DNA of 64,000 nt from a virus: positions 1 through 64,000 of IMG/VR virus record IMGVR_UViG_3300034198_023063; one strand, given 5' to 3'. The position numbers and the translations under genes are program-made. This document shows positions 38,091 to 59,305 of this stretch, piece by piece; the stretch's first letter is position 1; the number at the start of each line of letters is the position of its first letter. Below the pieces are notes generated by a model. The model had not been told where the DNA came from, searched no databases, and saw only the letters and a list, made by a program, of their open reading frames with translations.

Positions 38091-39248
38091 TCAAATTTTT
38101 TCGTTAGTCAAGAAGTAAAAGCTGTCAGCCTCTTCTTTGAAAGAGTCGTCTAAGATTTGAGGCAAAGGGAAAGAGCCATTTCTAACATCTGGGTGATTAA
38201 TTCCAGCCCGACAATGCCATTTGCTAGCGAACGTTTTCCCGCTTTTAATTATTATTTTATTTGTTTTGAAGAAAACTTTTGATTTATCAAGCCCATCTAA
38301 AAATGATAAATCCATTTTATTTAGCTTGTTAATTATTTTATAATTTAAATATTTTAGTTTTTCAGGCTCTAGGTCTTTATCGTTAAGGGATGTTATAATG
38401 TCATAATTAAATTTAAAAGACTCCAGTAAGTCTATAAAAGATGGATCTGAACCTTTTTGAACTTTAAAATATATTTTTTTAATTGAATTTTTATAAGTTA
38501 GTAAAATATTTTTAGAAATATCTCTATTTGTTACTATGGAAGCGGGACCATTTTTTAATTGATCAGCAAGGTTTGCTTCTGAAAAAAATTCATCCATTCT
38601 AACTAATATTTCATTTTTTGAATCATTAGTTATTTTAAAACTGCAATCTGGAATTAAATCCATAGTTGGAAATGAATAAACTTTCCCAATCGAAAGGGTT
38701 CTATCAAAATCATAATTTTCTTCAGGCGATAGTTTTGAAAGTATCTTTACTGCGATTTCTTCTGGTCTAATATTATTTATGAAATTACCAATAGGATTAA
38801 AAAAGTTTTTTGATGCTTTATTCGTATTGATGATTTCATTTTCGCCAAGCAGCAAATTGTCAACAAGATAATCTGTTTTTAAAAATATTTGCGGAATTCC
38901 TTTTTCAGAACAGATGAGAGAATAAAATTTTGAAGAACCACAATAAAGCATTGAGTGGTTTAGCATATAGGCTTTTTCAGACAAACTGGTTTCTTTGTCT
39001 ATGCAAGTGCGGCTGAATGGTTGTTTTTTGTCGTCTACAAAATTAACTATCTCTATACTATTTTTAGATAAGAAAGGCTCAATTAATTGAACGACCCTAC
39101 TCCAGAATACATAATTTAAATTTTGATCATCGTTTTGAGTTTCCAGCACTATGTATTTAGTGAATGGTAGTGGGAAAAACTTCTGATAAATAAAACTATC
39201 ATTAGGCTCGATGCCTGTAGTAGAAGAAAAAGATTTAAGTAAATTCAT
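38091..39248 (-). CDS. Protein with C-terminal half of a GT9-like glycosyltransferase
   Basis: 385 residues, start overlapping the upstream stop as ATGA. Residues about 15-125 (TKYIVLETQNDDQNLNYVFW ... MLYCGSSKFYSLICSEKGIP) follow the second Rossmann half of ADP-heptose:LPS heptosyltransferase-type GT9 enzymes, where a conserved D/S-x-x-x-H-x-A-x-x-x-G-x-P region binds the nucleotide sugar. The matching first half lies at the very end of the upstream gene, so one domain is split over two coupled genes. Residues 170-385 are not recognised; they contain a KWHCRAGINHPD segment. Likely a glycosyltransferase subunit; the donor sugar is unknown. Confidence 0.4.
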   Translation of the reverse strand: MNLLKSFSSTTGIEPNDSFIYQKFFPLPFTKYIVLETQNDDQNLNYVFWSRVVQLIEPFLSKNSIEIVNFVDDKKQPFSRTCIDKETSLSEKAYMLNHSMLYCGSSKFYSLICSEKGIPQIFLKTDYLVDNLLLGENEIINTNKASKNFFNPIGNFINNIRPEEIAVKILSKLSPEENYDFDRTLSIGKVYSFPTMDLIPDCSFKITNDSKNEILVRMDEFFSEANLADQLKNGPASIVTNRDISKNILLTYKNSIKKIYFKVQKGSDPSFIDLLESFKFNYDIITSLNDKDLEPEKLKYLNYKIINKLNKMDLSFLDGLDKSKVFFKTNKIIIKSGKTFASKWHCRAGINHPDVRNGSFPLPQILDDSFKEEADSFYFLTNEKI

Positions 39249-41110
39249 GGAACTAAAACAGAATGAAAATTATTAATAGAAAAATTATCAAGGCAATAAA
39301 TCGACTCAAAGTTATTTCTAAGAAATTCTAAATTGCTTAAATCTTTGCCTTGAACGAGAACTTCATGGACGTCAGTATTACCAAAGAATATTTCAGCAGA
39401 ATCTTTATTTGTATGAACAAATATTTTTTTATTTGGTTGTTTTTTCTTTATAGAAGAAATGATTTTAGTTGATAAAAAAACATTCTCCTTGGAAGAATTT
39501 ATACTAACAAAAATTCTGTCTTTCTTTTCGCTGTCTATGAATAAATTATCTACAGTAGTATTTTTAAATTTTGCTACTTCTTGCCTAGCAACATCTCTAA
39601 AAAATCCAACAATAGCATCTCTGGGAACGCCAGAATTTATTTTTTCAATCCAGTGCGTTAGACCTTCGTCGTTATCTTTGACTATTCTGCCTAGAATTTT
39701 AAAATATAAAGTTTTAAGCCATAAAATATTATCTTCTATGTTATCTATATTTGCTTCTGGGTTAGCTTTTGAATTTTTACTGTCTTCTGGACAATATTCT
39801 GAAAAGGGTTGCGAATCTAAAAATTTTTCTATTTTTCCACCAATAAAAGAGGCGGAAAAATTTTCAATTACCCATTTCCTAGCGGTTCTTCCCATTTTTT
39901 GTTTTTGAGACGAATCCATTTTGAAAACAGTTTCTAGATTTTTAGCAATTGATTTGGGGCAAGTTGAAGCTTTAATAAACTCCGTCCCGAATTCTCTATA
40001 TTCACTCCAGTCTAGAGGAATTGATGCGGCTTCTGGACAGCACATTTCTTCTCCGCAGCTATAGTTTGTAACTAAAGTAATTAAGCCAGTAAGCTTCGCT
40101 TCTTGTATGGGTATTTCCTGACCGCCGCTAGTAAAGGGATGACAATAAACATCCATGCAATTGTATATTTCATTTAATTGCTTTTCATTAACGCCGCAAG
40201 CAACACCAGTGGTTATTTGAGAATTATTAGTCCTGCAAAATTTACAACTGACTTCAGGGCCAGAGAAATTTTTAATTTCATACGCTTTGCAATTTCTACA
40301 AACGTATGTAGTCAAAACATCCGACTCTGCAACTCCAGTTTCTTTGCATAGTTTATGAATATTCCAACCTTCTTGCCAATGAGTGTGTAGAAGTAATTTT
40401 GCTGAAATCTGAGGATTGACGTCTTTGAAAATTTTAAAACCCTGTAGCAGATTAGGAACGGATTTTCTTAATTGATTTCTAAAAACAAATCCTATAATAA
40501 AATCTTTTTTTGGTATGTTGTTATTTTTTCTAATTTCATCCTTTTCTTCTTGAGGCAGCGGTTTGAAGTCGGAAATATAAATAGCTCCATGAAGGGTTTT
40601 AACGTGAGATAAACCGATCCTGTGCATTTCTTTCTCAGCAAAACTAGACCATACCCAATAGTTTTTAATTTTAGGAGCTTGAGATATGGCGGATGGAAGA
40701 AGCGGCAATGAATCTAAAGTGGTCCATATTACAGAATTAATTTTATTAAACCAAGGCTTATCAATGCAATAATCTACACCCCAAAAATCTTGAACTCCTA
40801 TATAGAAATCTGGTTTTTCATTTTCTATTATTTTATCTATTTCAAATGCTCCATATGAATATAGTCTAGTTTTATCTGGAGAACTATTAAAATCTTGAAG
40901 TTCTGGGCCTTGGCTTGGTACTACGCCAACGCTTCTCCAAGGGGTTCTTTCTAGCTCTGGATGATTTTTTGTTACTCCTCCAGCCAAGCTAATTATATCA
41001 TACTTTCCAGTATTATATAAATAAGAAAGAATGGCCTTGGCATTTCTGCCAAAGCCAGTCTTACTAAGAGCAAAATCGCTATGAAAAACTATTTTCTTCT
41101 TTTTTACCAT
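39245..41110 (-). CDS. GT-B glycosyltransferase with DUF4214-like domain and GT9 N-terminal half
   Basis: 621 residues. Residues 1-435 are a GT4/GT1-type GT-B enzyme: Gly-rich loop SKTGFGRNA near 16-24, a FRNQLRKSVPNLLQGF segment near 210-225 where the family has its R/K donor contacts, and SGGQEIPIQEAKLTGL near 328-343 (the E-x7-E region). Four cysteines at 271, 274, 289 and 292 make an inserted zinc knuckle, unusual for the family. Residues about 463-516 (YFKILGRIVKDNDEGLTHW) match the DUF4214 pattern seen in secreted and glycosyltransferase proteins. Residues 530-621 (RIFVSINSS ... KKKQPNKKIFVHTN ... NTDVHEVL) match the N-terminal half of GT9. It overlaps the upstream gene by 7 bases. Confidence 0.7.
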   Translation of the reverse strand: MVKKKKIVFHSDFALSKTGFGRNAKAILSYLYNTGKYDIISLAGGVTKNHPELERTPWRSVGVVPSQGPELQDFNSSPDKTRLYSYGAFEIDKIIENEKPDFYIGVQDFWGVDYCIDKPWFNKINSVIWTTLDSLPLLPSAISQAPKIKNYWVWSSFAEKEMHRIGLSHVKTLHGAIYISDFKPLPQEEKDEIRKNNNIPKKDFIIGFVFRNQLRKSVPNLLQGFKIFKDVNPQISAKLLLHTHWQEGWNIHKLCKETGVAESDVLTTYVCRNCKAYEIKNFSGPEVSCKFCRTNNSQITTGVACGVNEKQLNEIYNCMDVYCHPFTSGGQEIPIQEAKLTGLITLVTNYSCGEEMCCPEAASIPLDWSEYREFGTEFIKASTCPKSIAKNLETVFKMDSSQKQKMGRTARKWVIENFSASFIGGKIEKFLDSQPFSEYCPEDSKNSKANPEANIDNIEDNILWLKTLYFKILGRIVKDNDEGLTHWIEKINSGVPRDAIVGFFRDVARQEVAKFKNTTVDNLFIDSEKKDRIFVSINSSKENVFLSTKIISSIKKKQPNKKIFVHTNKDSAEIFFGNTDVHEVLVQGKDLSNLEFLRNNFESIYCLDNFSINNFHSVLVP

Positions 41111-41679
41111 AGATCATCGTCCGAAGACTCCTGCTTGGGTGCCTCTTCCTTTTTTGGAGCGGCCTGAGCGGGAGCAGCGGTCGATTTATTATCTTGTTCC
41201 TTCATTGCCTTTTCAAAGATTTTTGCCAAAGACAACATAAAATAAGATTCAAGCTTGATAGCTTCGCCAAAAGTAAAACCGATTAGGAATGAAGTTTTAT
41301 CTTGAGCATTTTCTCGGCTTTCCTTAGATACAGAAAGTGAGTAGCCAACTTGAGAAATCTGATTTGGATTATCCTTGCTGGCGCGATTGTATGGAGAAAA
41401 CTTAATTCGAGTTACTTGTTTAGGAGAATCGTGAAAGCCGTTGAATTCAGCATTTCTACGCATGGCTGAAATAATGTCTCCAATCTCAGTAGAACTGATT
41501 TTGACAGAGGCAGACATTTTTGGATTTTGAGCGTTTCCAGCGAAAGAGCCACGCTTCTTGGCTTCATCCCAACTAGATTGCTTGATTAGGTTAATATAGA
41601 CGCAGTCGTCCTTGGCTGAAAAGTTGAACGAACATCCAGTCCCAGTGTTTTTTGGATTCGGTTTATAAAATTGAATCAT
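41104..41679 (-). CDS. Putative single-stranded DNA-binding protein
   Basis: 191 residues. The core (SFNFSAKDDCVYINLIKQ, SASVKISSTEIGDIISAMRR, VGYSLSVSKES) has the strand-strand-helix order of small ssDNA-binding folds such as PC4/Whirly-type proteins. It is followed by an Ala/Pro/Lys/Gln linker (about 165-183) and an acidic tip ending SSDDDLW. An acidic tail ending in a bulky hydrophobic residue is the hallmark by which SSBs recruit replication and repair proteins. The place directly downstream of the polymerase gene supports the call. No direct recognition of an OB fold, so the fold is uncertain. Confidence 0.55.
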   Translation of the reverse strand: MIQFYKPNPKNTGTGCSFNFSAKDDCVYINLIKQSSWDEAKKRGSFAGNAQNPKMSASVKISSTEIGDIISAMRRNAEFNGFHDSPKQVTRIKFSPYNRASKDNPNQISQVGYSLSVSKESRENAQDKTSFLIGFTFGEAIKLESYFMLSLAKIFEKAMKEQDNKSTAAPAQAAPKKEEAPKQESSDDDLW

Positions 41680-41698: not shown

Positions 41699-44266
41699 TT
41701 ACTCTAGATTGTCAAGATTTTTTTCTTTAAGCTCAGACAATTTTGTATATATTTTTAGTGTTTGAACGCCGAAAGTTTCTGCGAAAACACAGTCTTGCTT
41801 TTTGGTTCCTTTAACGATAACTATGTCTTCAGTTTCGGGCAGATAATCGTTATTTGCCGACTTGTTAAAGTCGATTTTATCATTAAAGGTAAGGATGGGA
41901 ATTGATCCATACTCGTCAGACACAATCATCTTAAATGTTCTGGTTTTCTTTTCGTTTTTGGATACCCATTGGGAACTTTCTTCAACTTTGCCAACTATAA
42001 ATACAGTAGAGTTATCTTGTTTATTTGGTAAGTCTTTCAATGTGACTAGATTAGGCATCTTCTGAGAGAATATCTCAAATAAAGATTTGTCGTAGCTGTA
42101 TCCAAGAAGTTTAGTTTCATAAAACCAATTAGCAAAGCTTTCTGATTTATTATTTTGCTGGTAGATCTTTAAATAAGGATCATATTTCTTTTTGATTGTC
42201 TGAAATCTAGATTCTTTAATTAAAAGCTTGCCATTTTCATTCTTTGTCTCTGATAGCTTTTTAAGAACTTTAATTAAATCAAACTCAAATTCTGAACCAA
42301 ATTGAATGGCTAACACTTTTTCCTTATCAGTAAGAATATTCCATAATTGAGCCTCTAGCACAACTCTGCTTCTTGAAGATGAGAATCCATCTAACGCACC
42401 GGCTTGAATTAAAGCTGAAACAACTCCAATAGATAGCCCGACTTCTTTTGCTGCCTCAAAAACTTCGAACTTGTTTGAATGATCTGATTTAAAGTTTTTA
42501 AGCTTTTCCATCGTTTTTTCAGAAATACCCTTGATCGAAGACAATCCGAATCTAATGTCTTCTCCTTGAATTGAAAAATCTGTTTCTGATTTTAAGATAT
42601 GCGGGCCAAGAAGCTTTATGCCGAAATGCCTAAGTTCTTTCTGTATTTTTGAAATTTCTTCTAGAGGAGCAGGTTCATGCTTAGTCATCTCAAGCAGAGC
42701 GAGGAAAAAATGTTTTGGATACTTGAATTTTAAGTAAATAGTGCAAGCAGCCAATGCGGCATAACTCATTGAATGAGATTTATTGAAAGAGTAGTTTGCG
42801 GAGTTTTCTAAAATTCTCCACAGAATATCTCCAATCTCGGGAGCTAATTTATTTTCCTTAATTTTTTCAGAAATCTTTTCTTGCCACTTCTTTACTTCTT
42901 CTACCTTCTTTTTGCCAACAATTCGACGCAAAACTTCAGCTTCATCAAGAGTGAAGCCAATCTTGTTGGACATTTTCATTAACTGCTCTTGGTAAAGAGC
43001 TACGCCGCCACTTGAGCTAAGAACAGAATCAAAGAAAGGATGAATTGGTTCGTAAACATTGTTGTTAGTAAAATTAGCGTATTGATCTACGAACTCCAAG
43101 GCTCCGGGGCGAGCCAATGCAAGTACACCACTTAATTCTTCTAGATTTTTCGGTTTAACTTTTTTACAAACCTTGAAATTTGTATCAGCTTCAATTTGAA
43201 AAATTCCATGAGGAGTTTTTAAATCGGCTAGTTGTTGATAAATGAACGGATCGTTAAAATCTATATCGTTAACGTTTATTCCAACTAACTTGCAGACTCT
43301 ATCGACTATTGAAACGCTTCGCAAACCTAACAAGTCAAGTTTAACATTGAACGTGGATGCCCAGTTCATGTCATAGCTAGAGACCTGTTCCTTGTCGCTA
43401 GTAAGTTCAGTAGGGCAGCTTTTATCCATCGGGTAGTACGAAAGCATCATGCCAGATGCATGAACGCTTTTATTTTTGATTAAACTTCTTAATTTAAGAG
43501 CGGTATTGTAAACCCTTGGATTTTCATTACACCATTTCTTGAACTCTTCCACTTCGTCATAAGCGTCTTTCAGATCCATGACTTGGCCGAAAGTCTTCGG
43601 AATTAAAGAGCTTACGTCATTCATTTCTGTTTCTGTCTTTTCTTCTATTATTTTACCACATTCTTTGATTAGTAGTTTGCCACTCAAAGTGGTTAATGTT
43701 AAAATTTTAGAAGTCCTTCCAGAGAATAACTGCTCTAGGAATTTAATTACTTTATAGCGATTATAGTAGCAAATATCAATGTCAACATCGCACATTAAAG
43801 ATCCATCAAGATAAGTAATGCCATCGACTACTTGCTTCTTGGCTCGAATCTTAGAGATGAAACGCTCAAAGAATAGTTCGTATTTGATTGGATCTACCTT
43901 GGTAACCCCCAACAAATAAAGAATAAGGCTGCCAGCAGCAGAGCCGCGTCCAAGACCAACAGGAATGGAGTTTTCGTTGCAATAATTAACAACAGTCCAT
44001 ACTAATAGAACATAATCTAGAAATCCAAGCTCTTTAATGGTTTCCAGTTCATACTTTACTCTTTCTGAATATTTAGAGTATTCTTCTTTCGGAATTTTTA
44101 ATTTCTTAAAATTGCTTCTGCAAACTTGAATCAAAAAGTCATAGTTAGAAGACTCTTCTTTTAGGCCGTATTGAGTCTTGAGCCGGTTCTCTATATTAAA
44201 TTCTGGCAAACGAACGCCATACAATGGAAGCTTTATATTGTCAAACGCAGATTCAAATTTATTCAT
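41699..44266 (-). CDS. dnaE: DNA polymerase III alpha subunit, polymerase part without PHP domain
   Basis: 855 residues of C-family replicative polymerase. Visible: GLGRGSAAGSL at 104-114, the acidic motif CDVDIDI with catalytic D162 and D164, the third aspartate in VKLDLLGLR near 320, the thumb/fingers signatures GIFQIEADT and LALARPGALEF, LYQEQLMKM, RRIVGKKKVEE, and FNKSHSMSYAALAACTIYLK. The C-terminus carries an OB fold (VFIVGKVEESSQWV ... SIPILTFND near 750-805). Bacterial DnaE starts with a PHP domain of about 270 residues; here that part is in a separate gene two genes upstream, and this protein starts just where the polymerase part begins (LPEFNIENRL). It is coupled by ATGA to the exonuclease gene. 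It is the replicative polymerase of the phage. Confidence 0.95.
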   Translation of the reverse strand: MNKFESAFDNIKLPLYGVRLPEFNIENRLKTQYGLKEESSNYDFLIQVCRSNFKKLKIPKEEYSKYSERVKYELETIKELGFLDYVLLVWTVVNYCNENSIPVGLGRGSAAGSLILYLLGVTKVDPIKYELFFERFISKIRAKKQVVDGITYLDGSLMCDVDIDICYYNRYKVIKFLEQLFSGRTSKILTLTTLSGKLLIKECGKIIEEKTETEMNDVSSLIPKTFGQVMDLKDAYDEVEEFKKWCNENPRVYNTALKLRSLIKNKSVHASGMMLSYYPMDKSCPTELTSDKEQVSSYDMNWASTFNVKLDLLGLRSVSIVDRVCKLVGINVNDIDFNDPFIYQQLADLKTPHGIFQIEADTNFKVCKKVKPKNLEELSGVLALARPGALEFVDQYANFTNNNVYEPIHPFFDSVLSSSGGVALYQEQLMKMSNKIGFTLDEAEVLRRIVGKKKVEEVKKWQEKISEKIKENKLAPEIGDILWRILENSANYSFNKSHSMSYAALAACTIYLKFKYPKHFFLALLEMTKHEPAPLEEISKIQKELRHFGIKLLGPHILKSETDFSIQGEDIRFGLSSIKGISEKTMEKLKNFKSDHSNKFEVFEAAKEVGLSIGVVSALIQAGALDGFSSSRSRVVLEAQLWNILTDKEKVLAIQFGSEFEFDLIKVLKKLSETKNENGKLLIKESRFQTIKKKYDPYLKIYQQNNKSESFANWFYETKLLGYSYDKSLFEIFSQKMPNLVTLKDLPNKQDNSTVFIVGKVEESSQWVSKNEKKTRTFKMIVSDEYGSIPILTFNDKIDFNKSANNDYLPETEDIVIVKGTKKQDCVFAETFGVQTLKIYTKLSELKEKNLDNLE

Positions 44267-44901
44267 ATCTCGACTTGAAATTTAATTTTATTCCACACTT
44301 TTAGATTTAACTCCAAATCTACAATAGCATTGTGGAGATTTTCGTAATCATGCTCTATGTTATAATCTTTTCCGAGAGAAGTTAAATTAGTTTTAATGCC
44401 TTTTCTATAAGTATGAAGCAACTTGTATTGATATTCTACAAGGGACTCTTTTGGCATTTTAGGAATTCCATATTTGATTCCTTTAGCCAAGCAATTAGTA
44501 TCAAGGATTTTATTAACTAGATGGCTAGCTCGCATTCCTTTGAGTAAATACATCTCTTTTATTAAATACAAGTCGAAGCCAAGAATATTATGACCAACAA
44601 TATAGTCAGAACACTCAAGCCAATCCCTAACAGTACTAAACACATCATCAAATTTCTTGCCAGTTGTTCTAATAAGTTCTTCTGGATATCTTGTGATTCT
44701 TCTCGCATCTTCAGATATTTTAAGGTTTGTGTCCCATTTAACAAGAAAATCTCGCTCGTCGACTTTTTTTCCGCCAACAGTGCTTAGCATCGCTATTTGC
44801 CAAGGTAGATTTTGACAGAAATTAAGGCAAAGATTAAGTGTTTCGCAGTCGATAAAAACAAGTTTTTTAGACTTGTCAAATCTTAATAGTTCATTTTCCA
44901 T
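44263..44901 (-). CDS. DnaQ-like 3'-5' exonuclease (proofreading subunit)
   Basis: 212 residues with all DEDDh exonuclease motifs: ExoI D18-x-E20 (VFIDCET), ExoII GHNILGFDLYLI with D110, ExoIII H190-x4-D195 (HNAIVDLE). This is the epsilon/DnaQ family that removes mismatched 3' ends. The gene lies between the PHP-like and polymerase parts of a split DnaE; it overlaps the former by 11 bases and the latter by ATGA, so the three products are probably made together and form one holoenzyme. The C-terminal segment after motif III is short, with no recognised clamp-binding extension. Confidence 0.93.
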   Translation of the reverse strand: MENELLRFDKSKKLVFIDCETLNLCLNFCQNLPWQIAMLSTVGGKKVDERDFLVKWDTNLKISEDARRITRYPEELIRTTGKKFDDVFSTVRDWLECSDYIVGHNILGFDLYLIKEMYLLKGMRASHLVNKILDTNCLAKGIKYGIPKMPKESLVEYQYKLLHTYRKGIKTNLTSLGKDYNIEHDYENLHNAIVDLELNLKVWNKIKFQVEI

Positions 44902-45658
44902 ATTTTTCCTTGAATGATTCTGCGCAAAATTCGTTAGACGAAAAGTGGTCTAAGTTTGGTTTATTTAAAGTAGTTCTATTAGAAATACATCTGAAAGTTA
45001 AATACGTTAGAAAGTCTTCTTTGTTTTCGTAATACACAGATTGACTTTGCACTATAGAAGACTTGTCGAGAATTGTATCGTTAACCTTACGACTCAAAAT
45101 ACCATCGAAAGGCAAATTATTATCTTCAACAAAATAAATCAAATCGCAAAAACTAAAATCAGGAACGCAAATGCTATAAGTTAAGTTATTCTTAAAAATA
45201 TAGGAGTCGTAAAATGGTATTGCCATTAGAAGATTATCTTTATTCCATAGCTCTTTTAGAACTTTACAATCTATTCTTGGGTAATAATAAAATCCAGTAG
45301 TGCTGGCTGTTGTGGATATTTTAATTAGATCCTTATACCCTTCAGCATTTTTGATAAAGATTATTACTTTGTGCTCTTTATCTTTTGACTCAGTGGTCTT
45401 ATTATTTATATCATCACATATCGTGAGCCTAAGCCCAAACCTTAAATCAATCTTCGATTCTTCGCAAGACTTGTACGCCTCTAGAAAACCAGAAATAGAA
45501 TCTTCAACCAAATATAGTTTGTTTAATTTAAGTTTTAAAGCAATATCTATTATTGAGCTTGGTTCATGCTCTGAGCTAGACCCAGCCTTAGAAAGCGTCA
45601 AAATAGATTTCCCAAGACTATAATGGGATTTGAAAAGAGGAATGGCTGAGTAGTCCAT
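44891..45658 (-). CDS. Separate degenerate PHP domain of DNA polymerase III alpha
   Basis: 255 residues that follow the N-terminal PHP region of DnaE: PLFKSHYSLGKS replaces the usual H-x-H-S-x-Y-S-L; SIIDIALKLKLNKLYLVEDS replaces the A-x-x-x-x-x-x-x-LTDHG segment; FGLRLTI, FIKNAEGYKDLIKISTTAS and GFYYYPRID match closely; and the end (LNKPNLDHFSSNEFCAESF) matches the F-Y-x-K-S-x-E-E-M linker that precedes the polymerase part. Most metal-binding histidines of active PHP domains are absent, so it is probably structural rather than a nuclease. The 33 bases upstream (45659-45691) are among the larger gaps in this strand's array but show no clear promoter. Confidence 0.85.
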   Translation of the reverse strand: MDYSAIPLFKSHYSLGKSILTLSKAGSSSEHEPSSIIDIALKLKLNKLYLVEDSISGFLEAYKSCEESKIDLRFGLRLTICDDINNKTTESKDKEHKVIIFIKNAEGYKDLIKISTTASTTGFYYYPRIDCKVLKELWNKDNLLMAIPFYDSYIFKNNLTYSICVPDFSFCDLIYFVEDNNLPFDGILSRKVNDTILDKSSIVQSQSVYYENKEDFLTYLTFRCISNRTTLNKPNLDHFSSNEFCAESFKEKYGK

Positions 45659-45691: not shown

Positions 45692-46654
45692 TCAAAAAGT
45701 TGGATCATCTTTGCGCCAAAATGGGCAACCTTTATAAGATGTTTTATTTATCAAAACAATATTCGAATCATTAAAAAGATCGTCTCTGTTAAAAGATGAT
45801 TTAATAAATTTATCATTCTTATCGTAACCCATATAATAAGTAGCTGGAAGTCTGGATGGACAAATCCATTTTCCCTCTACGTCACTTCCACACATCCATT
45901 TCTTTTTTGGAGTACTCGCAGCTAAATTTTGAACAGCTCTTTTTTCATCAAAAGATGATATGTATCCAGCGACGTAACTAAGATAAGCCTTGAAACCCTC
46001 TAATTGCTCTACGGTTGGTTTTGGGGCTTCTTGAATTGGCTGTTTTTTAAATTTAAGAAAAATAAATGAGACATCTGGAATATGGCCTTTAGTTTTAAAT
46101 ACAGCTAAAGAATACATCAAGTTTTGTAGGTTAAAGTCAATCTCTTCTTTAGAAAACTTACCTTTGCTTGATTTGTAGTCGTAAATTTTATAGTTTGTAT
46201 CGCTAAATTTTGCAAGCTTGTCAATAAATCCATTGATAATATAATCTTCCTCTTCAAGTTTAAACTCTGATTCAGCTTCAACAAGCAAAGCTCCACTACA
46301 GAAAAAGTCGCTTTGAAGACCTGTTTGGATCATATTATAAATAAGATCTAAATTTTCTTCGTCATTTACTTTGAGCTTTTTAGCGTGTTTTAGAATAAGT
46401 CTATGGATAGATGGATTTTTTATAACTCCAGCTTTGCCAGAGCATAGATCTTCAAAATATTTTTTATGCCTATCAGTAAGGAGTAGCTCAAATATTAAAT
46501 GGCAAATTGTCCCCCTTGAAGCTCCAGCGTTAGAAATATCTGGAAGTTTAAGAATATATTTAGTATAGTAAAGCCAGCTACACCCTTCGGCGGTTTTTAT
46601 TTTACTAGCGCTTAGTTTTACTTTTTCTTTATTAATTAAAGTGTCTTGTGCCAT
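45692..46654 (-). CDS. Cas4/RecB-like PD-(D/E)XK nuclease
   Basis: 320 residues. The nuclease core is visible: SASKIKTAEGCSWLYYTKY at the N-terminus as in Cas4/AddB/RecB nucleases, GTICHLIFE (the conserved G-x2-x-H), then GFIDKLAKF (motif II Asp), YKIYDYKSSKG (D-Y-K) and LQNLMYSLAVF (Q-x3-Y-x-x-A). Cysteines at 25, 255, 265 and 310 could ligate an iron-sulphur cluster, as in Cas4 and AddB, although the spacing of the last three is wider than usual. It overlaps the primase gene by 19 bases. Likely processes DNA ends in replication or recombination; Fe-S binding is inference. Confidence 0.75.
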   Translation of the reverse strand: MAQDTLINKEKVKLSASKIKTAEGCSWLYYTKYILKLPDISNAGASRGTICHLIFELLLTDRHKKYFEDLCSGKAGVIKNPSIHRLILKHAKKLKVNDEENLDLIYNMIQTGLQSDFFCSGALLVEAESEFKLEEEDYIINGFIDKLAKFSDTNYKIYDYKSSKGKFSKEEIDFNLQNLMYSLAVFKTKGHIPDVSFIFLKFKKQPIQEAPKPTVEQLEGFKAYLSYVAGYISSFDEKRAVQNLAASTPKKKWMCGSDVEGKWICPSRLPATYYMGYDKNDKFIKSSFNRDDLFNDSNIVLINKTSYKGCPFWRKDDPTF

Positions 46655-47568
46655 TGTAATATCTTTGCTTTGTCTAGCAGGTTTAAGTCTCCAAAGTCTT
46701 TCCCGCCAACAGGAAGATTGATTGAAATTTGATTTGTGTCAAAATAATTCAGTAATTTATTTTTTACAGCTTCCGCTGCTTCATTGCCAGCGTTGTTTGC
46801 TTGAGAGTCGTTATTAAAAGCTACAATTATTCTTTTAGGATTGATGGCGATTAAACTATAAATTATTTTAACAGAAAGATTGAGACCAAATGTAACTATG
46901 CAATTTTTGATTCCATTTTCTCTCAAAGCGAGCATGTCGCCAATGCTTTCCACAAGAATTACGGATTTGCTTTCTTTGATATCTTCTAAATTTACCTTTA
47001 AAGGGTAAACCCATTCTTTTTTATCTCCTATGTGTTTCCATTTTGGCCTTCCGTCTAAAGACAAAGGACCTACGTCTCTACCTGAAAAACCGATAATATT
47101 ATCTTTGTTATCAAATACTGGGAAGGTGTATCTATTATACATTTTACCAGTAGTAGCAAGGCCGCATTGAAATGGAAGTAAAGTAGACGCAGAAATGCCT
47201 CTATTTAACCAGTAAGAATCGTCTTTGGCCAATTTTAATAATAAAGATTTATCAAAATATTGGATTTGAGAAGTTGTTATCTTGGGTTTTTCTATCTCTT
47301 TAGTATCATAATTAACTCCTTTGGAAGAGATCCAGCTTTTAGCTTCGGTTATGTTTTTAAGCTTTAAAGTTATTTTAACTAGCTCCTCCAAGGACCCGCT
47401 TTTGCTTTCCTTGAAATCAACCCATTGACCAGAGTTTTTCCAGATGCGAAGTACGTTATCGTTATCTGAGTCTCTATACAATGGCTTTGCTCTATATTCT
47501 CTTCCGTTATCGTTAAGAACATAGCCTAAATCCTGTAGGATTTGCCTAACAGACTCGCAGTCGTTCAT
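46636..47568 (-). CDS. dnaG: DnaG-type primase with TOPRIM domain
   Basis: 310 residues, shorter than bacterial DnaG (about 600) and without a helicase-binding C-terminal domain. Residues about 135-290 form the primase core and TOPRIM fold: YWLNRGISASTL, FPVFDNKDNIIGFSGRDVG, VILVESIGDMLALRENGI (catalytic Glu), and IIVAFNNDSQANNAGNEAA where DnaG has F-D-x-D; the first Asp is Asn here. The N-terminal 70 residues look like a CHC2 zinc domain in outline but hold none of its cysteines. The gene is coupled by ATGA to the upstream DnaB helicase gene, the usual partner. Confidence 0.88.
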   Translation of the reverse strand: MNDCESVRQILQDLGYVLNDNGREYRAKPLYRDSDNDNVLRIWKNSGQWVDFKESKSGSLEELVKITLKLKNITEAKSWISSKGVNYDTKEIEKPKITTSQIQYFDKSLLLKLAKDDSYWLNRGISASTLLPFQCGLATTGKMYNRYTFPVFDNKDNIIGFSGRDVGPLSLDGRPKWKHIGDKKEWVYPLKVNLEDIKESKSVILVESIGDMLALRENGIKNCIVTFGLNLSVKIIYSLIAINPKRIIVAFNNDSQANNAGNEAAEAVKNKLLNYFDTNQISINLPVGGKDFGDLNLLDKAKILQWHKTL

Positions 47569-49028
47569 AGAAGTTCGCCATCTCCAGAATCGTCTAATTC
47601 GGGTCTTAAAGATCTAGCTTCAACAATATCTTCAAGAGTTCCCTTTTCTTCAACATTAAAATTTGATATATTAAAGCTGATATAGTTAGGAATATACTTA
47701 GTTCTTTTGCCTTCTTTAATTCTAACTAAATCATGGTGACCGGCAGAATCTTTGCCTTGAAAGCGTGTAGCTAAAGGAATTAATTTGTGAGATCCAAATT
47801 CTTCTCCATCGTCAGCGATTTCTTCTACGGTTTTTCTTCTAAAAATACCTACGAACGAAGCAAACCACTGTAAACGATCTGATTGAGAAATTGCACTACT
47901 ATCATCAACGCCATTTTCTGCGCTTCTATTTAATTGGCAAGCTGTAAGAATTGGAATATTTAATTCAGAAGCAAGTTCTTTCAAAGCGTTCACCTTATCG
48001 CCAATCAACTGATACTCTTGTTTGTTTTTATCCATTTCTCCAGTCAGTTTTATATAGTCATAAACGATAACGCATGGATTTCCTCTGCCAACTTTCGCAA
48101 AGTACCATCGGCGAATAATTGAAATAACCTCTTCAATTGGTTTGCCAGAGACCTGAACGTGATCTACTTGATTCTGTATTTTAATTATATCAGATTTCTT
48201 TTCTTGAAAAAGATTGTATAGATTTGTGTTTTTCTTCCAATTTCCAGTTTCTAGATACCAAACAGGAATCTGCGTGATTGAGGAGGCTATTCTGAACTTC
48301 ATATCTAGAGTAGACATTTCAGTATCAAGAACTAAGGCTCTGCAACCTTTATTAATTGTTGTGGTTTTTATTGCTAGATCATTTAAGATAGTTGATTTGC
48401 CATGCTTTGGGCGACTAACCCAAGCGTATAAGTTTCCGGGCCTTACGCCACCATAAAGGCGATTAAAGTTTTGATATGGAGTCTCTAGTCCATTTTCTTT
48501 GATTGGATTATTGCCTCTTTCCTCAATGATCTCTATAACATTAGAAGTTATATCTTCTGGCTTATCATTTTCGTTAGCATAAAGAGATATTTTTTTATTA
48601 TAGATCTGGTCTGATTCGGTGATAATTGACTCAAGATCTTTTTCCGCACAACTATGCGCGAATTTCTTGATGTTTTCGCCGGTCTCTTCCAGCTCTCTTC
48701 TTACTCTAAATTTAACTAATTCTTTTGCAGCTTCAATCAATCCATTCTTTGTTGTCGGGATTAAGCATATGCTGTTGACATAATCAAAAACATTGATGCT
48801 TTGATCTTTAAATGTAATGCCTAGGTTTTGCGCTTTTTGAGCTACAAGAACTTTATCTACAGTTGAGCCATTTTCAAAGCAGTCTTTGAAGACACAAAAA
48901 ATAGTATAATGAACGTCATTGACAAAATCATTTTCATTAATAAAAGAACGAACATCGCCAAATGAATCGTGATGCCTAATTAAGCCTGAAAGAATGTATT
49001 TTTCTAACTGCAAAGAATAAATTGCCAT
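47565..49028 (-). CDS. dnaB: DnaB-like replicative DNA helicase
   Basis: 487 residues with the two-domain DnaB layout. The N-terminal domain (1-110: LEKYILSGLIRH, FVNDVHYTIFCVFKDCF) is the primase-interacting helical part; the RecA-like C-terminal domain begins about 180 with TPYQNFNRLYGGVRPGNL, followed by Walker A SRPKHGKST at 205-213, a LVLDTEMS segment (H1a), Walker B CVIVYDYIKL, ILTACQLNR (H3) and an R-rich end near 410-440. It unwinds the fork ahead of the C-family polymerase. It is coupled by ATGA to primase and lies just after the small nuclease gene. Confidence 0.95.
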   Translation of the reverse strand: MAIYSLQLEKYILSGLIRHHDSFGDVRSFINENDFVNDVHYTIFCVFKDCFENGSTVDKVLVAQKAQNLGITFKDQSINVFDYVNSICLIPTTKNGLIEAAKELVKFRVRRELEETGENIKKFAHSCAEKDLESIITESDQIYNKKISLYANENDKPEDITSNVIEIIEERGNNPIKENGLETPYQNFNRLYGGVRPGNLYAWVSRPKHGKSTILNDLAIKTTTINKGCRALVLDTEMSTLDMKFRIASSITQIPVWYLETGNWKKNTNLYNLFQEKKSDIIKIQNQVDHVQVSGKPIEEVISIIRRWYFAKVGRGNPCVIVYDYIKLTGEMDKNKQEYQLIGDKVNALKELASELNIPILTACQLNRSAENGVDDSSAISQSDRLQWFASFVGIFRRKTVEEIADDGEEFGSHKLIPLATRFQGKDSAGHHDLVRIKEGKRTKYIPNYISFNISNFNVEEKGTLEDIVEARSLRPELDDSGDGELL

Positions 49029-49029
49029 A

Positions 49030-49446
49030 TTATAATATTATATTAAATTTCTCAAGGAAAAACTTTTCATTTAAAGAATCAACTTCATTGTCGTAGATCT
49101 CAACAAGAATAAATTTATTCAATGTGAGCCAGTTTTCCTTGGCGACATCTCGCTTAATTGATTTTAAATAATTTAAACGAGAATCGTTATGAAAAAACTT
49201 ATTGTAAGCAGAGTGCTGTGGGCCGTGGACCTCAACAGCAATCTTGCGAGTTGCGTTCAAAATGTCAACTTTTAATCGACTTCCAAACACAGGAAACTCC
49301 TCGTAGACAATATGGTTTTGCCAATATTTTCTAAGGAACTGCTTGGTTTTAAATTGTATTTTAGATCTGGAGGCGGCGTCCCAGTCTATAGTATATTGAG
49401 ATACATTTTTGCTTACAACCTTGCCAAAAGCATTATAGAGCTTCAT
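49030..49446 (-). CDS. Small VSR/DUF559-like nuclease
   Basis: 138 residues. Residues 30-80 follow the VSR/DUF559 endonuclease-like core: QFLRKYWQNHIVYEE (E50), RLKVDILNATRKIAVEVHG with D61 and E72, then Q77-H78, matching the x-x-V-D-f ... i-E-l-d-G-x-x-H pattern. The rest is a helix and a VEIYDNEV strand, as in the family. Proteins of this fold nick or cut DNA at mismatches or ends, or resolve structures. It is coupled by ATGA to recA on one side and is one base from dnaB on the other, so a role in phage recombination or replication is more likely than homing. Confidence 0.6.
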   Translation of the reverse strand: MKLYNAFGKVVSKNVSQYTIDWDAASRSKIQFKTKQFLRKYWQNHIVYEEFPVFGSRLKVDILNATRKIAVEVHGPQHSAYNKFFHNDSRLNYLKSIKRDVAKENWLTLNKFILVEIYDNEVDSLNEKFFLEKFNIIL

Positions 49447-50555
49447 TTCTTTAGGACGCTAATAAATTTATCAAACAAATATTTAGTGATGTTTGGGTTT
49501 TCCTCAAGGAAATTTTTGAGATTGGCTTCTCCTTGATGTTGTTTTGGAAACTCTAAATTATTATCAGCAAGCTCTTTGACAAGCTCGTCAGTTATAGTTA
49601 TCCAAGCTCCTTTTGCATGAGCGAACTCCCAAGCAAGCAATTGGTCCACAATCTCATATTCAATCCAAACGCTAGAGCCGTTTTTGCGCCCATATTTAAT
49701 TGGATACCGAACTTCTCTGCCAGATTTCTCATTTGGAGTTTTTTTGAAAACTATTTTGCACCAATGCCCGACAGGATTACCATCTTGTTTGGCGTTTGCA
49801 TAAATAAAGTCTTTGTTCCAACGCTGCTGGAATTCTAGGATCCAGTCAGAATAATGAAGGGCTGCGTTTCCGCCGCTGGCATTAGTAACTTTTGGATCAC
49901 CCTTCTCGTAAGGATTAATCTTAATTGAAGATCTGACTTGAGAAATTATGAAACAAATGTGACCTCTGGAAGAAAAAGCGGCGGCCATCTTACGAAGTAG
50001 GTCCGCAGTTAGGAGCGCGGCTCCAGCAGTCTTGTTAGCTTCAGTGGATGACTTTGCTAAATCGTTTCTTGGTACTAAAGCGTCAAGGCTATCAAGAATG
50101 AAGAAATATAAATTATTGTCATCGTTATCTTTGATTAGCCTTCGCATCATGTCGATGACAAATTCATAATCATTAGTTGGAATTACTTTCCAACGGTCTG
50201 GATCTGTGCTTACTCCAGATCTTTCAATGATTGCTTCACTAAGTCTGCCTTCAGATTTTATATAAATAATACATCCTTTTTCTGGATGAAGATCTTGAAA
50301 GCTTTTAGCGAAAGCCAGAGCGTTGCTTGTTTTGCCGCCTTCTGTGACACCGGAAGATCTTACGATACCGGGATGGATTCCTCCGCCCATTTCAATATCT
50401 AAAGTTAAACTGCCGCTGCTAACTACATAATCAATATTATTATCAAAAGCATAATGATGTTCTTTATTATCTTTTAAGATAGAATCTAAAACACGAAGTT
50501 TGTTAGATGATGATTCTTCTTGTATTTCGGAGGTTTCTTTTTTGGGTCGTGCCAT
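49443..50555 (-). CDS. recA: RecA/UvsX-like recombinase
   Basis: 370 residues of RecA-family strand-exchange protein. Visible: GSLTLDIEMGGGIHPGIV, Walker A GVTEGGKT at 69-76 (bacterial RecA has GPESSGKT), Walker B FFILDSLDALVP, and the loop-2 region LRKMAAAFSSRGHICFIISQ followed by VTNASGGNAALHYSDWIL. The N-terminal 30 residues are charged and partly disordered, and the C-terminal part (about 300-370) is acidic and helical. It starts behind the A/T-rich leader CAATAAATAAT with no Shine-Dalgarno. It drives phage recombination and repair, probably with the SSB-like and annealing-like products of the same array. Confidence 0.93.
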   Translation of the reverse strand: MARPKKETSEIQEESSSNKLRVLDSILKDNKEHHYAFDNNIDYVVSSGSLTLDIEMGGGIHPGIVRSSGVTEGGKTSNALAFAKSFQDLHPEKGCIIYIKSEGRLSEAIIERSGVSTDPDRWKVIPTNDYEFVIDMMRRLIKDNDDNNLYFFILDSLDALVPRNDLAKSSTEANKTAGAALLTADLLRKMAAAFSSRGHICFIISQVRSSIKINPYEKGDPKVTNASGGNAALHYSDWILEFQQRWNKDFIYANAKQDGNPVGHWCKIVFKKTPNEKSGREVRYPIKYGRKNGSSVWIEYEIVDQLLAWEFAHAKGAWITITDELVKELADNNLEFPKQHQGEANLKNFLEENPNITKYLFDKFISVLKK

Positions 50556-50934: not shown

Positions 50935-51993
50935 TCAGAGATTAGTCAAGAGGGAAATATCGTGCAAGACCATTTTGCTGACAAGGTCTTTAAATGAAGA
51001 CTTTGGACTCCATCCAAGCTCTTCTATGGCTGGATTTGAATTGCCGAGAAGTAGATCGACCTCTGCTGGTCGATAAAATTTAGGATTTATTTTAACTAAA
51101 ATAGATGAAGATGGATCATTTTTAATGGCGTATTCGGTGGTGACGCTGTACTCCTCGCTCGTTCCTTGACCATGCCAAGCCCCTTGAATGCCTGCTGTTG
51201 AAAATGCAAGCTCAACAAATTCTCTAATTGAATGAGTTTCATTTGAAGAAAGGACATAATCTTTAGGAGAGTCTCTGTTTAACATTTTCCATACCCCATC
51301 AACAAAGTCTTCGCTGTCTGACCAGTCTCTTTTAGAGTCTAGATTTCCAAGTTCAATAGCCTCAAATACTTCTCCTTTATTAATAGCATTTATTATTCTA
51401 GCTACTCCTTTAGTTATTTTTCTTGTAACAAACTCTTCTCCTCTTTTTGTCCCTTCATGATTAAATAAAATGCCATGAACGGCGTAAAGGTTGTAAGACT
51501 CTCTGTAGACCTTGACAATATGCCTAGCGGCAGCTTTAGAGGCTCCATATGGGCTTCTTGGGCGAATAGGATGGGCGATATCTTGAGGGGCGTAGGCTAC
51601 GTCTCCGAACTCTTCACTTGACCCAGCAGAATAAAACCTGCAAGCTGGTCGATGTTTTCTTATAGCTTCAAGGCATCTTGCGACTCCAGTGGCATTTGTA
51701 TCAAATGTTTGCAATGGTATTTCCCAACTGCAACCAACAAAGCTTTGCGCACCAAAATTAATAAAGTAATCTGGTTGTATTTCTTTAACTAGAGAATCTA
51801 TTGAAACACTATCGCAAAGATCGGCATAAACAAACTTAAATCTACTATTTTTAATAAACGACTGACAGTTTACAAAATTTGGATTAGAACTTCTTCTTAT
51901 TGTTCCAAATATTTCATGGTTAGTATTTTTTAATAAATACTCGACCATGTTTGCCCCGTCTTGCCCTAAAACGCCGGTTATTAAAACTCTCAT
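50935..51993 (-). CDS. gmd: GDP-mannose 4,6-dehydratase
   Basis: 352 residues, close to the usual Gmd length. Rossmann motif GVLGQDGANM at the N-terminus, NFGAQSFVGCSWEIPL, SAGSSEEFG, catalytic YGASKAA (Y-x3-K), FNHEGTKRGEEFVTRKI, LGNLDSKRDWSDSEDFVDG (the R-D-W-x-x-x-x-D-x-V signature) and YRPAEVDLLLGN are all present. It converts GDP-D-mannose to GDP-4-keto-6-deoxy-D-mannose, the precursor of fucose, rhamnose, perosamine and colitose. The DegT-fold gene at 53989-55164 could take its product further. It lies at the border between the sugar genes and the replication genes. Confidence 0.95.
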   Translation of the reverse strand: MRVLITGVLGQDGANMVEYLLKNTNHEIFGTIRRSSNPNFVNCQSFIKNSRFKFVYADLCDSVSIDSLVKEIQPDYFINFGAQSFVGCSWEIPLQTFDTNATGVARCLEAIRKHRPACRFYSAGSSEEFGDVAYAPQDIAHPIRPRSPYGASKAAARHIVKVYRESYNLYAVHGILFNHEGTKRGEEFVTRKITKGVARIINAINKGEVFEAIELGNLDSKRDWSDSEDFVDGVWKMLNRDSPKDYVLSSNETHSIREFVELAFSTAGIQGAWHGQGTSEEYSVTTEYAIKNDPSSSILVKINPKFYRPAEVDLLLGNSNPAIEELGWSPKSSFKDLVSKMVLHDISLLTNL

Positions 51994-51994
51994 A

Positions 51995-52309
51995 TCAAAA
52001 CTTTACTCTTCCAATAATTATATCTTTAAGCATTACCCAGTCCGCTGCCTTAGCCCAGATTGGATTTTTAAATGCGGCTGGTTTATTTTTCTCTATGAAA
52101 AAATGACCGCTCCAAGCAAATGGATAAACAATAAATGGAAGCGCTATAAACATGGGAAGAAAAAACAAAGACTTCCAAAAAACGAGTCTGATACAAAGAA
52201 TAAAATAACCAATTGTAAACAACTGACCCAGAACATGAAGTCTTCTGTTCCACTTATTTTGATGGAGTGTTAGATACATTTCGTAATATTCTTTAAATGT
52301 CATATTCAT
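51995..52309 (-). CDS. DUF962/Mpo1-like small membrane protein
   Basis: 104 residues. Visible: FKEYYEMYLTLHQNKWNRRLH, two hydrophobic segments (about 31-47 and 48-66), and YPFAWSGHFFIEKNKPAAF followed by an Asp-containing helix. This is the pattern of DUF962, the family of yeast Mpo1, an iron-dependent 2-hydroxy fatty acid dioxygenase; the conserved H-x-x-x-x-x-R-x-x-H and G-H-x-x-x-E-x-N residues are there. The start at 52309 overlaps the upstream stop (ATGA). Why a phage would carry it is unclear; a role in lipid or membrane modification is inferred from the family. Confidence 0.75.
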   Translation of the reverse strand: MNMTFKEYYEMYLTLHQNKWNRRLHVLGQLFTIGYFILCIRLVFWKSLFFLPMFIALPFIVYPFAWSGHFFIEKNKPAAFKNPIWAKAADWVMLKDIIIGRVKF

Positions 52310-53034
52310 GATTTTAATAATTCGCTAGATGAATATATTTTAGGAAGATCAAGAACTATTTCTAAAATATTATTTTCTTTGCAAGTTACGGACTCGGCGG
52401 AGTCTAGGTTTCCGTGTTTTCTGTCTCCACTGTTAAAAAACATGATTTTACAATCTTGATACTTACTTTTAATTAATTTTAGAGTTCGGCATTGAGTTTT
52501 ATCTTGATCTATAGAAACTATAGCTTCGTCTACACTTTTAAGATTTTTTAATATATCTTGCCTATGCGACTCTGACATAAACGATTTGCTACCTTTTAGT
52601 AAAACTTGATGATCATTATTTATAATAGCTATTAAATAAGAGCAGTTCTTTTTTGCTTCATTTATGTATTCTAGATGCCCGGAGTGGATGGGGTTGAAGT
52701 ATCCAGATACAACGCCTATAGTTTTATTTTTTATTGATTTTCTCCAATCAACAGCATTTAGGCCCTTATCGTCAATAAAAATATCGCCGTTTGGTTTACC
52801 TTTATCTATAAGTTCGTGGTATTTAACGCCCCAATGGTTTAGTTGTTTTACTGTTAGTTCATGCCAGTTTAATCCTGATGAAGCCCCTCTGGCGGTAAAT
52901 AAGATTATTATATTTCCATTTTCATAGAGATAATTTATTTCTTTTACAGCTTCTGGAAATGGCTCAGCTTTTTCGTACTCTCTTTTTTCATTTGTGGAAC
53001 ATATAGTTCCATCTATGTCAATAACATATCTCAT
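52306..53034 (-). CDS. HAD phosphatase fused to cytidylyltransferase-like nucleotidyltransferase
   Basis: 242 residues from the ATG at 53034, which gives MRYVIDIDGTIC; a TTG 15 codons upstream would overlap the kinase gene more deeply. Residues 1-110 are a small HAD phosphatase of the capsule-biosynthesis type: DIDGTIC, LFTARG, KPNGDIFIDDKG. Residues 112-242 are a nucleotidyltransferase: GYFNPIHSGHLEYINEAKK (the H-x-G-H signature), LLKGSKSFMSESHR, FFNSGDRKHG and a final SSS. It resembles RfaE/HldE C-terminal domains. With the kinase gene that overlaps it by 17 bases, it could phosphorylate, dephosphorylate and activate one sugar, perhaps a heptose. The substrate is inferred. Confidence 0.8.
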   Translation of the reverse strand: MRYVIDIDGTICSTNEKREYEKAEPFPEAVKEINYLYENGNIIILFTARGASSGLNWHELTVKQLNHWGVKYHELIDKGKPNGDIFIDDKGLNAVDWRKSIKNKTIGVVSGYFNPIHSGHLEYINEAKKNCSYLIAIINNDHQVLLKGSKSFMSESHRQDILKNLKSVDEAIVSIDQDKTQCRTLKLIKSKYQDCKIMFFNSGDRKHGNLDSAESVTCKENNILEIVLDLPKIYSSSELLKS

Positions 53035-53992
53035 TTGTATTATCAAATATAGTAGAAGCTCCGGAATCGTCGAAGTCAAAATCTAAAACGCTGTTTCCAA
53101 ATGTTTCTTTAATTCTTTTCTTTACATTGGGATTGCAAATAACTAACACAAAACCGCATCCACCAGCGCCAAGGAGTTTGGCCCCATAAGCTCCGAGGCC
53201 AATGCATGTAGTAATAATGTTGTTTACAGAGCTGGTGGCTATTTGGTTTGATATCTTACGTTTCTCCATCCAAGATTGATATAGCAGGTTTCCTATTTCA
53301 CGAATATTTTCATTTATGAAAGAGCTATAAGCAGCTTTTGCTAATTGGAGTATTTCTAGTTTGTTTTGATTTTCGTGAGACTTGGCGACGTCGCTAGACT
53401 GTCTTTGCTCATTAGAGTAAATTAAAACCATTGATCTTTGAAGCTCTCGTTTGAACTCCTCTGTAACTGGCAGGGGCTTAACAAGAAAGTCGCCATTGGT
53501 TTTAATATTTATTGTATTAAGTCCTCCATAAGCGGACCATATTTGATCTTGAATACCGCCACTTTCGTTGAGGGTTGTTCTTTCTATTTCTATAGCGTCT
53601 TTTGCTAGCGTTTTTTTAGAAGTTTCTAGTTTAAGAAATTTTCTAATTAAATAACTCATTCCGACGCAATAAGAGGATGACCCTCCTAGGCCTGTTCTAG
53701 AAGGTATATCGGAAAAAGAAATAAATTCTATAGGAGATTTAATTTTAAAATATTTTAACGTTTCTCTTATAAGTGGATTTTCTATTTCTTCTAATGTTTT
53801 AACTCTTTCAAACTTTGAATAACTTATTGTCGTTTCTTCGGATAAAATTTTTGGTTTTTCTCTTATAGAAAGATATGCATATTTATTTATAGCGCAGCCA
53901 ATTATAAAAGATTCATGCTTCTCGTAAAAATCTTTATAATCAGTCGAGCCACCAAAAAATGAAACTCTAAATGGAGATTTCGCTAAAATCAT
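53018..53992 (-). CDS. GHMP-family sugar kinase, HddA-like
   Basis: 324 residues with GHMP kinase motifs: the N-terminal SPFRVSFFGGSTDYKDF, the ATP-binding loop PSRTGLGGSSSYCVG near 92-106, and the third motif LLGAGGCGFVLVI near 268-280. The R-[IV]-S-F-F-G-G-[GS]-T-D start is typical of D-glycero-D-manno-heptose 7-phosphate kinase HddA. It overlaps the HAD/nucleotidyltransferase gene downstream by 17 bases and the DegT-fold gene upstream by ATGA. A sedoheptulose 7-phosphate isomerase (GmhA) was not found in the window, so either the host supplies it or the substrate differs. Confidence 0.82.
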   Translation of the reverse strand: MILAKSPFRVSFFGGSTDYKDFYEKHESFIIGCAINKYAYLSIREKPKILSEETTISYSKFERVKTLEEIENPLIRETLKYFKIKSPIEFISFSDIPSRTGLGGSSSYCVGMSYLIRKFLKLETSKKTLAKDAIEIERTTLNESGGIQDQIWSAYGGLNTINIKTNGDFLVKPLPVTEEFKRELQRSMVLIYSNEQRQSSDVAKSHENQNKLEILQLAKAAYSSFINENIREIGNLLYQSWMEKRKISNQIATSSVNNIITTCIGLGAYGAKLLGAGGCGFVLVICNPNVKKRIKETFGNSVLDFDFDDSGASTIFDNTNEICY

Positions 53993-55164: not shown

Positions 55165-55179
55165 ACAGTATTAGTTTTA

Positions 55180-55974: not shown

Positions 55975-55980
55975 AATATA

Positions 55981-58406: not shown

Positions 58407-58407
58407 A

Positions 58408-59304: not shown

Positions 59305-59305
59305 A

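What the first reader, a model, noticed from the sequence alone, without database searches (positions are those of the whole stretch)
41699..45658. Replicative polymerase split: PHP, exonuclease, polymerase as three overlapping genes
DnaE is a single chain of PHP plus polymerase. Here the PHP-like part (255 residues, most metal-binding His lost) and the polymerase part (855 residues) are separate genes, cut right at the interdomain linker, with the DnaQ proofreading gene placed between them. In PolC the exonuclease is inserted in the PHP domain of one chain; this is a related but different solution. Overlaps of 11 and 4 bases suggest coupled synthesis.
Basis: seen in the sequence. Interest (0 to 1): 0.7.

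Follow-up and report, generated by a model that had tools for sequence, protein, structure and literature searches.

The report
Phage replicative polymerase built from three chains
A widespread group of uncultured phages makes its bacterial-type replicative DNA polymerase as three separate proteins (a dead metal-site PHP domain, a proofreading exonuclease and the polymerase proper) instead of one or two chains; a cut between PHP and polymerase has also arisen independently in a few other phages, so this is an unusual but real variant of a known enzyme.

Summary
Three overlapping minus-strand genes encode a DnaE-type PHP domain (255 aa), a DEDDh exonuclease (212 aa) and the rest of a family-C polymerase (855 aa). 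This is not a read error: in 67 distinct viral contigs with full-length copies, the three are always separate, co-oriented and in this order; none is fused. The 80.8-kb record and ten relatives of 93-175 kb hold exactly one PHP domain and one polymerase domain each. All nine PHP metal ligands are lost in the window; four positions have become conserved Lys/Arg. The exonuclease and polymerase catalytic residues are invariant. The cut lies at about E. coli DnaE residue 260, just before the last PHP strand. Overlaps are conserved only in close relatives; others have gaps or extra ORFs at the junctions. The PHP|polymerase cut is not unique: cultured Rhodococcus phages (Grayson, Peregrin, Weasels2, Trina) have it, with an intact PHP site and no exonuclease between, and a tree needs several independent cuts. 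The three-gene arrangement with a dead PHP was not found in the papers I could search. Verdict: new variant of a known kind.

The parts
44891..45658 (-). PHP chain, 255 aa: stand-alone DnaE-type PHP domain, metal site fully degenerate
   Evidence: Pfam PHP E 4e-12; PHROG 405 DNA polymerase residues 61-292; family profile best PDB match is T. aquaticus Pol III alpha residues 96-252; ligands L8 K10 K17 S54 R77 K97 A146/gap S207 Y209 instead of HHDHEHCDH
44263..44901 (-). EXO chain, 212 aa: DnaQ-like DEDDh 3'-5' exonuclease, predicted proofreader
   Evidence: Pfam RNase_T E 2e-11; PHROG 192 'DNA polymerase exonuclease subunit' E 7e-22; D18 E20 D110 H190 D195 invariant in 45 of 45
41699..44266 (-). 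POL chain, 855 aa: family-C polymerase palm/thumb/fingers, HhH and probable OB, without PHP
   Evidence: Pfam DNA_pol3_alpha, finger, HHH_6; PHROG 405 residues 324-1082; PDB DnaE match E 1.7e-93; GRGS 106-109 and catalytic D160 D162 D311 invariant in 45 of 45
44891..44901 (-). 11-base overlap of PHP and EXO
   Evidence: 11 or 8 bases in the closest relatives, not in most others
44263..44266 (-). 4-base (ATGA) overlap of EXO and POL
   Evidence: conserved in the closest relatives, replaced by a 150-320-base gap in 41 of 50
41104..41679 (-). downstream conserved ORF, 191 aa, acidic tail ending DDDLW; SSB-like by position and tail only
   Evidence: ORF; no convincing family match; same place in most relatives
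45692..46654 (-). PD-(D/E)XK (Cas4/RecB-like) nuclease in the same replication cluster
   Evidence: Pfam PDDEXK_1 E 5e-14
46636..47568 (-). DnaG-type primase (Toprim)
   Evidence: Pfam Toprim_2 E 2e-8, PHROG 47 DNA primase E 3e-27
47565..49028 (-). DnaB-type replicative helicase
   Evidence: Pfam DnaB_C E 7e-23
49443..50555 (-). RecA/UvsX-type recombinase
   Evidence: Pfam RecA E 2e-14, PHROG 97 UvsX-like E 2e-33

Best explanation
The three genes encode the core replicative polymerase of this phage as three separate chains. POL does the synthesis. EXO is the 3'-5' proofreader. PHP is no longer an enzyme; it packs against the amino-terminal end of POL in trans, as the fused PHP domain does in DnaE, stabilising it and probably providing the dock for EXO. 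Shown: three conserved genes, their families, intact polymerase and exonuclease sites, loss of the PHP metal site, and no other PHP or family-C polymerase domain in the contigs searched. Inferred: that they form one complex, that PHP bridges EXO and POL, that EXO proofreads, and that the phage borrows the host clamp.
For: 67 of 67 contigs keep all three genes separate, co-oriented and in order, even where other ORFs have entered the junctions. Ten relatives of 93-175 kb and the window record have exactly one PHP and one polymerase domain. Replacements at the dead metal site are nearly fixed (K10 45/45, K97 45/45, R77 44/45, S207 44/45), so the fold is maintained; dN is 0.15-0.20 for PHP between the window and its close relatives with saturated dS. 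Literature: PHP is found in all bacterial C-family polymerases, stabilises E. coli Pol III even when dead, its metal loss goes with a separate DnaQ-type proofreader, and E. coli PHP is the epsilon binding site (PMC3666897; PMC12926913; PMC3919608). Evolutionary rates of PHP, EXO and POL co-vary beyond the genome average: partial r 0.64 (PHP-EXO), 0.51 (EXO-POL), 0.48 (PHP-POL). The same cut kept in several cultured phages suggests that PHP and POL can work as two chains.
Against: EXO ends about 10 residues after its nuclease domain, so it lacks an E. coli epsilon-like carboxy-terminal tail, the part that binds PHP there; docking must differ. The rate covariation is weak evidence: CAS4-HEL, not a known complex, scores higher (0.75).
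Confidence: 0.72

Rival explanations
1. Neutral gene fragmentation: a mobile endonuclease or recombination once broke a fused dnaE at a tolerant domain boundary and the pieces were kept without functional gain. The chains still assemble; the split itself means nothing.
For: Independent cuts at nearly the same place in unrelated phages; endonuclease genes interrupting other phage dnaE genes, e.g. HNH in KLEB27-3 and an intein-like half with an intervening ORF in L024; varied insert ORFs at the PHP-EXO junction in this clade.
Against: The gene lying between PHP and POL in every genome is a proofreading-type exonuclease, not a mobile endonuclease, and the order is fixed in 67 of 67 contigs.
Confidence: 0.18
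2. PHP has left the polymerase and now does another job (for example binding a host replication factor), while POL works without any PHP domain.
For: All nine metal ligands gone; the helix just before the cut in fused homologues (E. coli about 240-258) is not recognisable in the window PHP.
Against: Its closest relatives are still DnaE PHP domains; it stays in the polymerase operon everywhere; PHP is reported as invariably present in bacterial C-family polymerases (PMC3666897).
Confidence: 0.12
3. EXO is a general DnaQ-superfamily nuclease used for nucleotide salvage or recombination rather than the proofreader.
For: No match to solved epsilon chains even as a profile and none in 50,697 phage records; the superfamily is functionally broad.
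Against: PHROG 192 'DNA polymerase exonuclease subunit' E 7e-22; always between PHP and POL; the PHP proofreading site is dead so a separate proofreader is expected; rate covariation with both partners.
Confidence: 0.1
4. One chain is restored after transcription or translation (intein trans-splicing, intron, frameshift).
For: Split inteins and endonuclease insertions are known in phage polymerases (PMC6892783).
Against: No intein-like residues at the PHP end (..FKEKYGK) or POL start (MNKFES..); a complete exonuclease gene with its own start, stop and an AAGGA motif lies between; in relatives further ORFs intervene.
Confidence: 0.02
5. Assembly or sequencing error split one gene.
For: None.
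Against: Same three genes in 67 distinct contigs down to about 50-60% identity.
Confidence: 0.01

Closest known systems
Split dnaE of cultured Rhodococcus phages Grayson, Peregrin, Weasels2 and Trina
   Same: PHP (303 aa) and polymerase (942 aa in Grayson) are adjacent, slightly overlapping separate genes
   Different: PHP metal site intact (read in Grayson), no exonuclease gene between, cut about 10 residues later (E. coli about 268/269), independent origin: nearest relative Streptomyces phage Larnav is fused
E. coli Pol III core (alpha-epsilon-theta)
   Same: DnaE-type polymerase, degenerate PHP, separate DEDDh exonuclease
   Different: alpha is one chain; E. coli keeps 4 of 9 PHP ligands, the window none; EXO lacks an epsilon-type tail
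PolC of Firmicutes
   Same: PHP, DEDDh exonuclease and C-family polymerase used together
   Different: one chain with the exonuclease inside PHP and the OB domain before PHP (PMC3919608)
DnaE1 of Bacteroidetes with fused exonuclease
   Same: DnaE with a dedicated exonuclease
   Different: exonuclease fused to the amino end of PHP in one chain (PMC3919608)
Pbunavirus crassa and phage Bas101 epsilon-alpha gene pair
   Same: exonuclease gene directly upstream of dnaE, 1-base overlap; degenerate PHP (read in crassa)
   Different: PHP remains fused to the polymerase
Fragmented phage polymerase genes (intein or intron/endonuclease linked, e.g. MIJ3 PolB, MEP401 PolA)
   Same: replicative polymerase encoded in pieces
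   Different: other polymerase families, cut inside the catalytic region or at an intein; no domain-boundary cut with a proofreader gene between (PMC6892783, PMC10580990)

Membership tests
C-family (DnaE-type) DNA polymerase | Pol beta-like palm with three catalytic aspartates and GRGS motif | tested here: met
   D160, D162, D311 and GRGS invariant in 45 of 45; aligned to E. coli D401, D403, D555
C-family (DnaE-type) DNA polymerase | DnaE domain content: PHP, palm/thumb, fingers, HhH, OB after the HhH | tested here: met
   Pfam and PHROG 405 cover PHP on one chain and the rest on the other; OB only weakly matched
C-family (DnaE-type) DNA polymerase | PHP and polymerase in a single polypeptide | tested here: not met
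   separate genes in 67 of 67 contigs
C-family (DnaE-type) DNA polymerase | DnaE carboxy-terminal tau-binding domain | tested here: inconclusive
   POL ends soon after the OB-like stretch; no family match beyond
PolC | exonuclease inserted inside the PHP domain, OB amino-terminal to PHP | tested here: not met
   exonuclease is its own gene after PHP; OB-like stretch is carboxy-terminal
Active PHP proofreading domain | HHDHEH[C/H]DH metal site | tested here: not met
   0 of 9 in the window; Cys at one ambiguous column in 21 of 45 relatives
DnaQ/epsilon-type DEDDh exonuclease | D-E-D-D plus H active site | tested here: met
   D18 E20 D110 D195 H190 invariant in 45 of 45
DnaQ/epsilon-type DEDDh exonuclease | carboxy-terminal tail binding clamp and PHP (E. 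coli epsilon) | tested here: not met
   RNase_T domain ends at residue 202 of 212
DnaQ/epsilon-type DEDDh exonuclease | proofreads the polymerase | not testable with these tools
   needs biochemistry
Split-intein or homing-endonuclease-fragmented polymerase | intein halves or mobile endonuclease at the break | tested here: not met
   none at the window junctions; extra ORFs only in some relatives

The most novel reading that the evidence does not exclude
The free PHP chain is an exchangeable adaptor: it can leave POL and bind EXO or the host Pol III machinery, so that proofreading or host clamp access is regulated by subunit exchange, which a fused DnaE cannot do.
Probability: 0.12. Interest if true: 0.8.

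Novelty: new variant of a known kind. Interest (0 to 1): 0.5.

Why it matters
PHP is described as a fixed part of every bacterial family-C polymerase chain, yet its role when catalytically dead is debated. A natural enzyme in which the dead PHP is a separate, removable subunit lets that role (stability, docking of the proofreader) be tested simply by leaving one protein out. It also shows that the PHP/polymerase boundary is a recurrent evolutionary breakpoint.

Tried and rejected
Exonuclease profile against solved structures: no match. Exonuclease against cultured phages: no match. dN/dS: synonymous sites saturated for most pairs, so only 'strong purifying selection' can be said. Rate covariation is suggestive only. 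Considered and rejected: sequencing error, intein, intron, PolC membership. Sliding clamp search (third domain of the bacterial beta clamp): none found in 11 records, but the records are fragments. Literature searches and readings found split phage polymerases of families A and B, no description of a PHP/exonuclease/polymerase gene trio; the library lacks many subscription papers.

Full report
Observation. Pfam identifies a PHP domain, an RNase_T exonuclease and the DNA_pol3_alpha, finger and HHH_6 domains. PHROG 405, a 1190-position phage DNA polymerase family, is matched by PHP over 61-292 and by POL over 324-1082, so the two chains tile one ordinary DnaE. The window is part of an 80,757-base virus record.

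Not an error, not chance. Searches of viral contigs brought in 80 distinct contigs of this clade. Seventy-nine show parts of all three genes as separate ORFs (the other ends before POL); 67 have all three full length, always in the order PHP, EXO, POL on one strand; none is fused. Identities to the window go down to about 50% (PHP), 57% (EXO) and 60% (POL). One contig (IMGVR_UViG_3300032282_004893) is 100% identical over the locus and is not independent evidence. Ten relatives of 93-175 kb have exactly one PHP and one polymerase domain each, as does the window record.

Anatomy. Aligned to E. coli DnaE and to fused and split phage enzymes, the PHP chain ends near E. coli residue 259 and POL starts near 260; POL carries the 'VRLPEF' strand that corresponds to E. 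coli 'YFLPQF', and the helix before it is not recognisable in the window. The cut is therefore at the end of the PHP domain rather than in the linker proper. PHP has none of the nine canonical metal ligands (positions from PMC3666897): L, K, K, S, R, K, A or gap, S, Y. Four became conserved basic residues: K10 (45/45), K/R17 (45/45), R/K77 (R in 44), K97 (45/45); position 7 is ambiguous, with Cys in 21 of 45 sequences. Barros et al. note that lost ligands are often replaced by arginine, standing in for the metal charge, which fits a retained but inactive fold. EXO keeps D18, E20, D110, H190, D195 and POL keeps GRGS, D160, D162 and D311 in 45 of 45. EXO has no extension after its nuclease domain, unlike E. 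coli epsilon.

Junctions. The overlaps are conserved among close relatives (11 or 8, and 4 bases). Among 50 non-redundant genomes, 32 have PHP and EXO within 60 bases and 18 have more than 150 bases between them; I read four of these loci (L036, L053, L058, L062), which hold whole ORFs there, including a cupin-like protein and others without a Pfam match. EXO and POL are separated by 150-320 bases in 41 of 50, with a small ORF of 73-96 aa in the four such loci read (L036, L041, L053, L062). So gene order, not translational coupling, is what selection keeps. In the window EXO has an AAGGA motif upstream; POL has none obvious, which leaves local coupling of EXO and POL possible.

Other splits. 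Among cultured phages most dnaE matches are annotated as single genes. Rhodococcus phages Grayson, Peregrin, Weasels2 and Trina have a 303-residue PHP gene (Pfam E 6e-40 in Grayson) next to a separate polymerase gene (942 aa in Grayson), while their nearest relative Larnav is fused. Bacillus phage vB_BpsS-140 has an unannotated 363/852-residue pair overlapping by 43 bases (a frameshift error is possible there), and contig L023 has PHP and POL about 1 kb apart. Grayson, vB_BpsS-140 and L023 keep intact metal sites and are cut at about E. coli 268-289. A tree of the polymerase part puts the window clade on its own 100/100 branch and needs at least three separate changes for the other splits; placement of long branches is uncertain.

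Mechanism. The best reading is a three-chain core polymerase: POL synthesises, EXO proofreads, and the dead PHP is a structural and docking subunit in trans. This rests on established biology: PHP is present in bacterial C-family polymerases even when dead, stabilises E. coli Pol III, binds epsilon there, and its metal loss goes with a separate DnaQ proofreader (PMC3666897, PMC12926913, PMC3919608). Rate covariation after removing the genome average is 0.64 for PHP-EXO, 0.51 for EXO-POL, 0.48 for PHP-POL; of the twelve other pairs eleven are at or below about 0.31 and one (CAS4-HEL) is 0.75. No bacterial-type clamp was found in 11 records, so the host clamp is probably used.

Known or new. The pieces and the general idea (polymerase plus separate proofreader; occasional split dnaE) are known. 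A conserved three-gene trio with a fully dead, free PHP was not found in the papers searched. I file it as a new variant of a known kind.

Noticed in passing
L011 5854-6945 and 6903-9461 (Bacillus phage vB_BpsS-140): Unannotated PHP and polymerase ORFs overlapping by 43 bases; either a natural split or a frameshift error in the deposited record.
   Followed up: partly
L114 3010-6742; L119 4501-8279 (Rhodococcus phages Grayson, Trina): dnaE cut at the PHP boundary (metal site intact in Grayson); both genes are annotated simply as DNA polymerase III alpha or DNA polymerase.
   Followed up: yes
L023 3896-8522: PHP gene and polymerase gene separated by a small ORF and a calcineurin-like phosphoesterase gene; intact PHP site.
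   Followed up: partly
L024 5882-10925: dnaE broken inside the palm with an intein-like carboxy half (ending ILIHN before SSPDIDIDY) and a 349-aa ORF between: looks like a split intein in a fractured dnaE.
   Followed up: no
L041 7641-7862 and equivalents in L036, L053, L062: A small ORF (73-96 aa) with a very acidic tail between EXO and POL; absent from the window's own subclade; no Pfam match for the L041 copy.
   Followed up: partly
L036 6636-7001, L053 6459-6998, L058 6415-6996, L062 3656-5049: Different unrelated ORFs (cupin-like, possibly HNH-like and others) inserted between PHP and EXO: an insertion hot spot.
   Followed up: partly
L112 2966-7336 (KLEB27-3), L115 3134-6369 (Cuke), L111 3194-6476 (phiT1): dnaE split further downstream, inside the polymerase region; HNH endonuclease between in KLEB27-3.
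   Followed up: no
window 51995-52309: Mpo1-like (2-hydroxy fatty acid dioxygenase family) protein encoded in a phage, Pfam E 2e-26.
   Followed up: no
window 50935-63507: Long cluster of sugar-nucleotide and polysaccharide genes (GDP-mannose dehydratase-like, aminotransferase, GHMP kinase, HAD-cytidylyltransferase, E1/transketolase-like pair).
   Followed up: no
window 39245-41110: 621-aa glycosyltransferase with a DUF4214-like stretch next to the replication genes.
   Followed up: no
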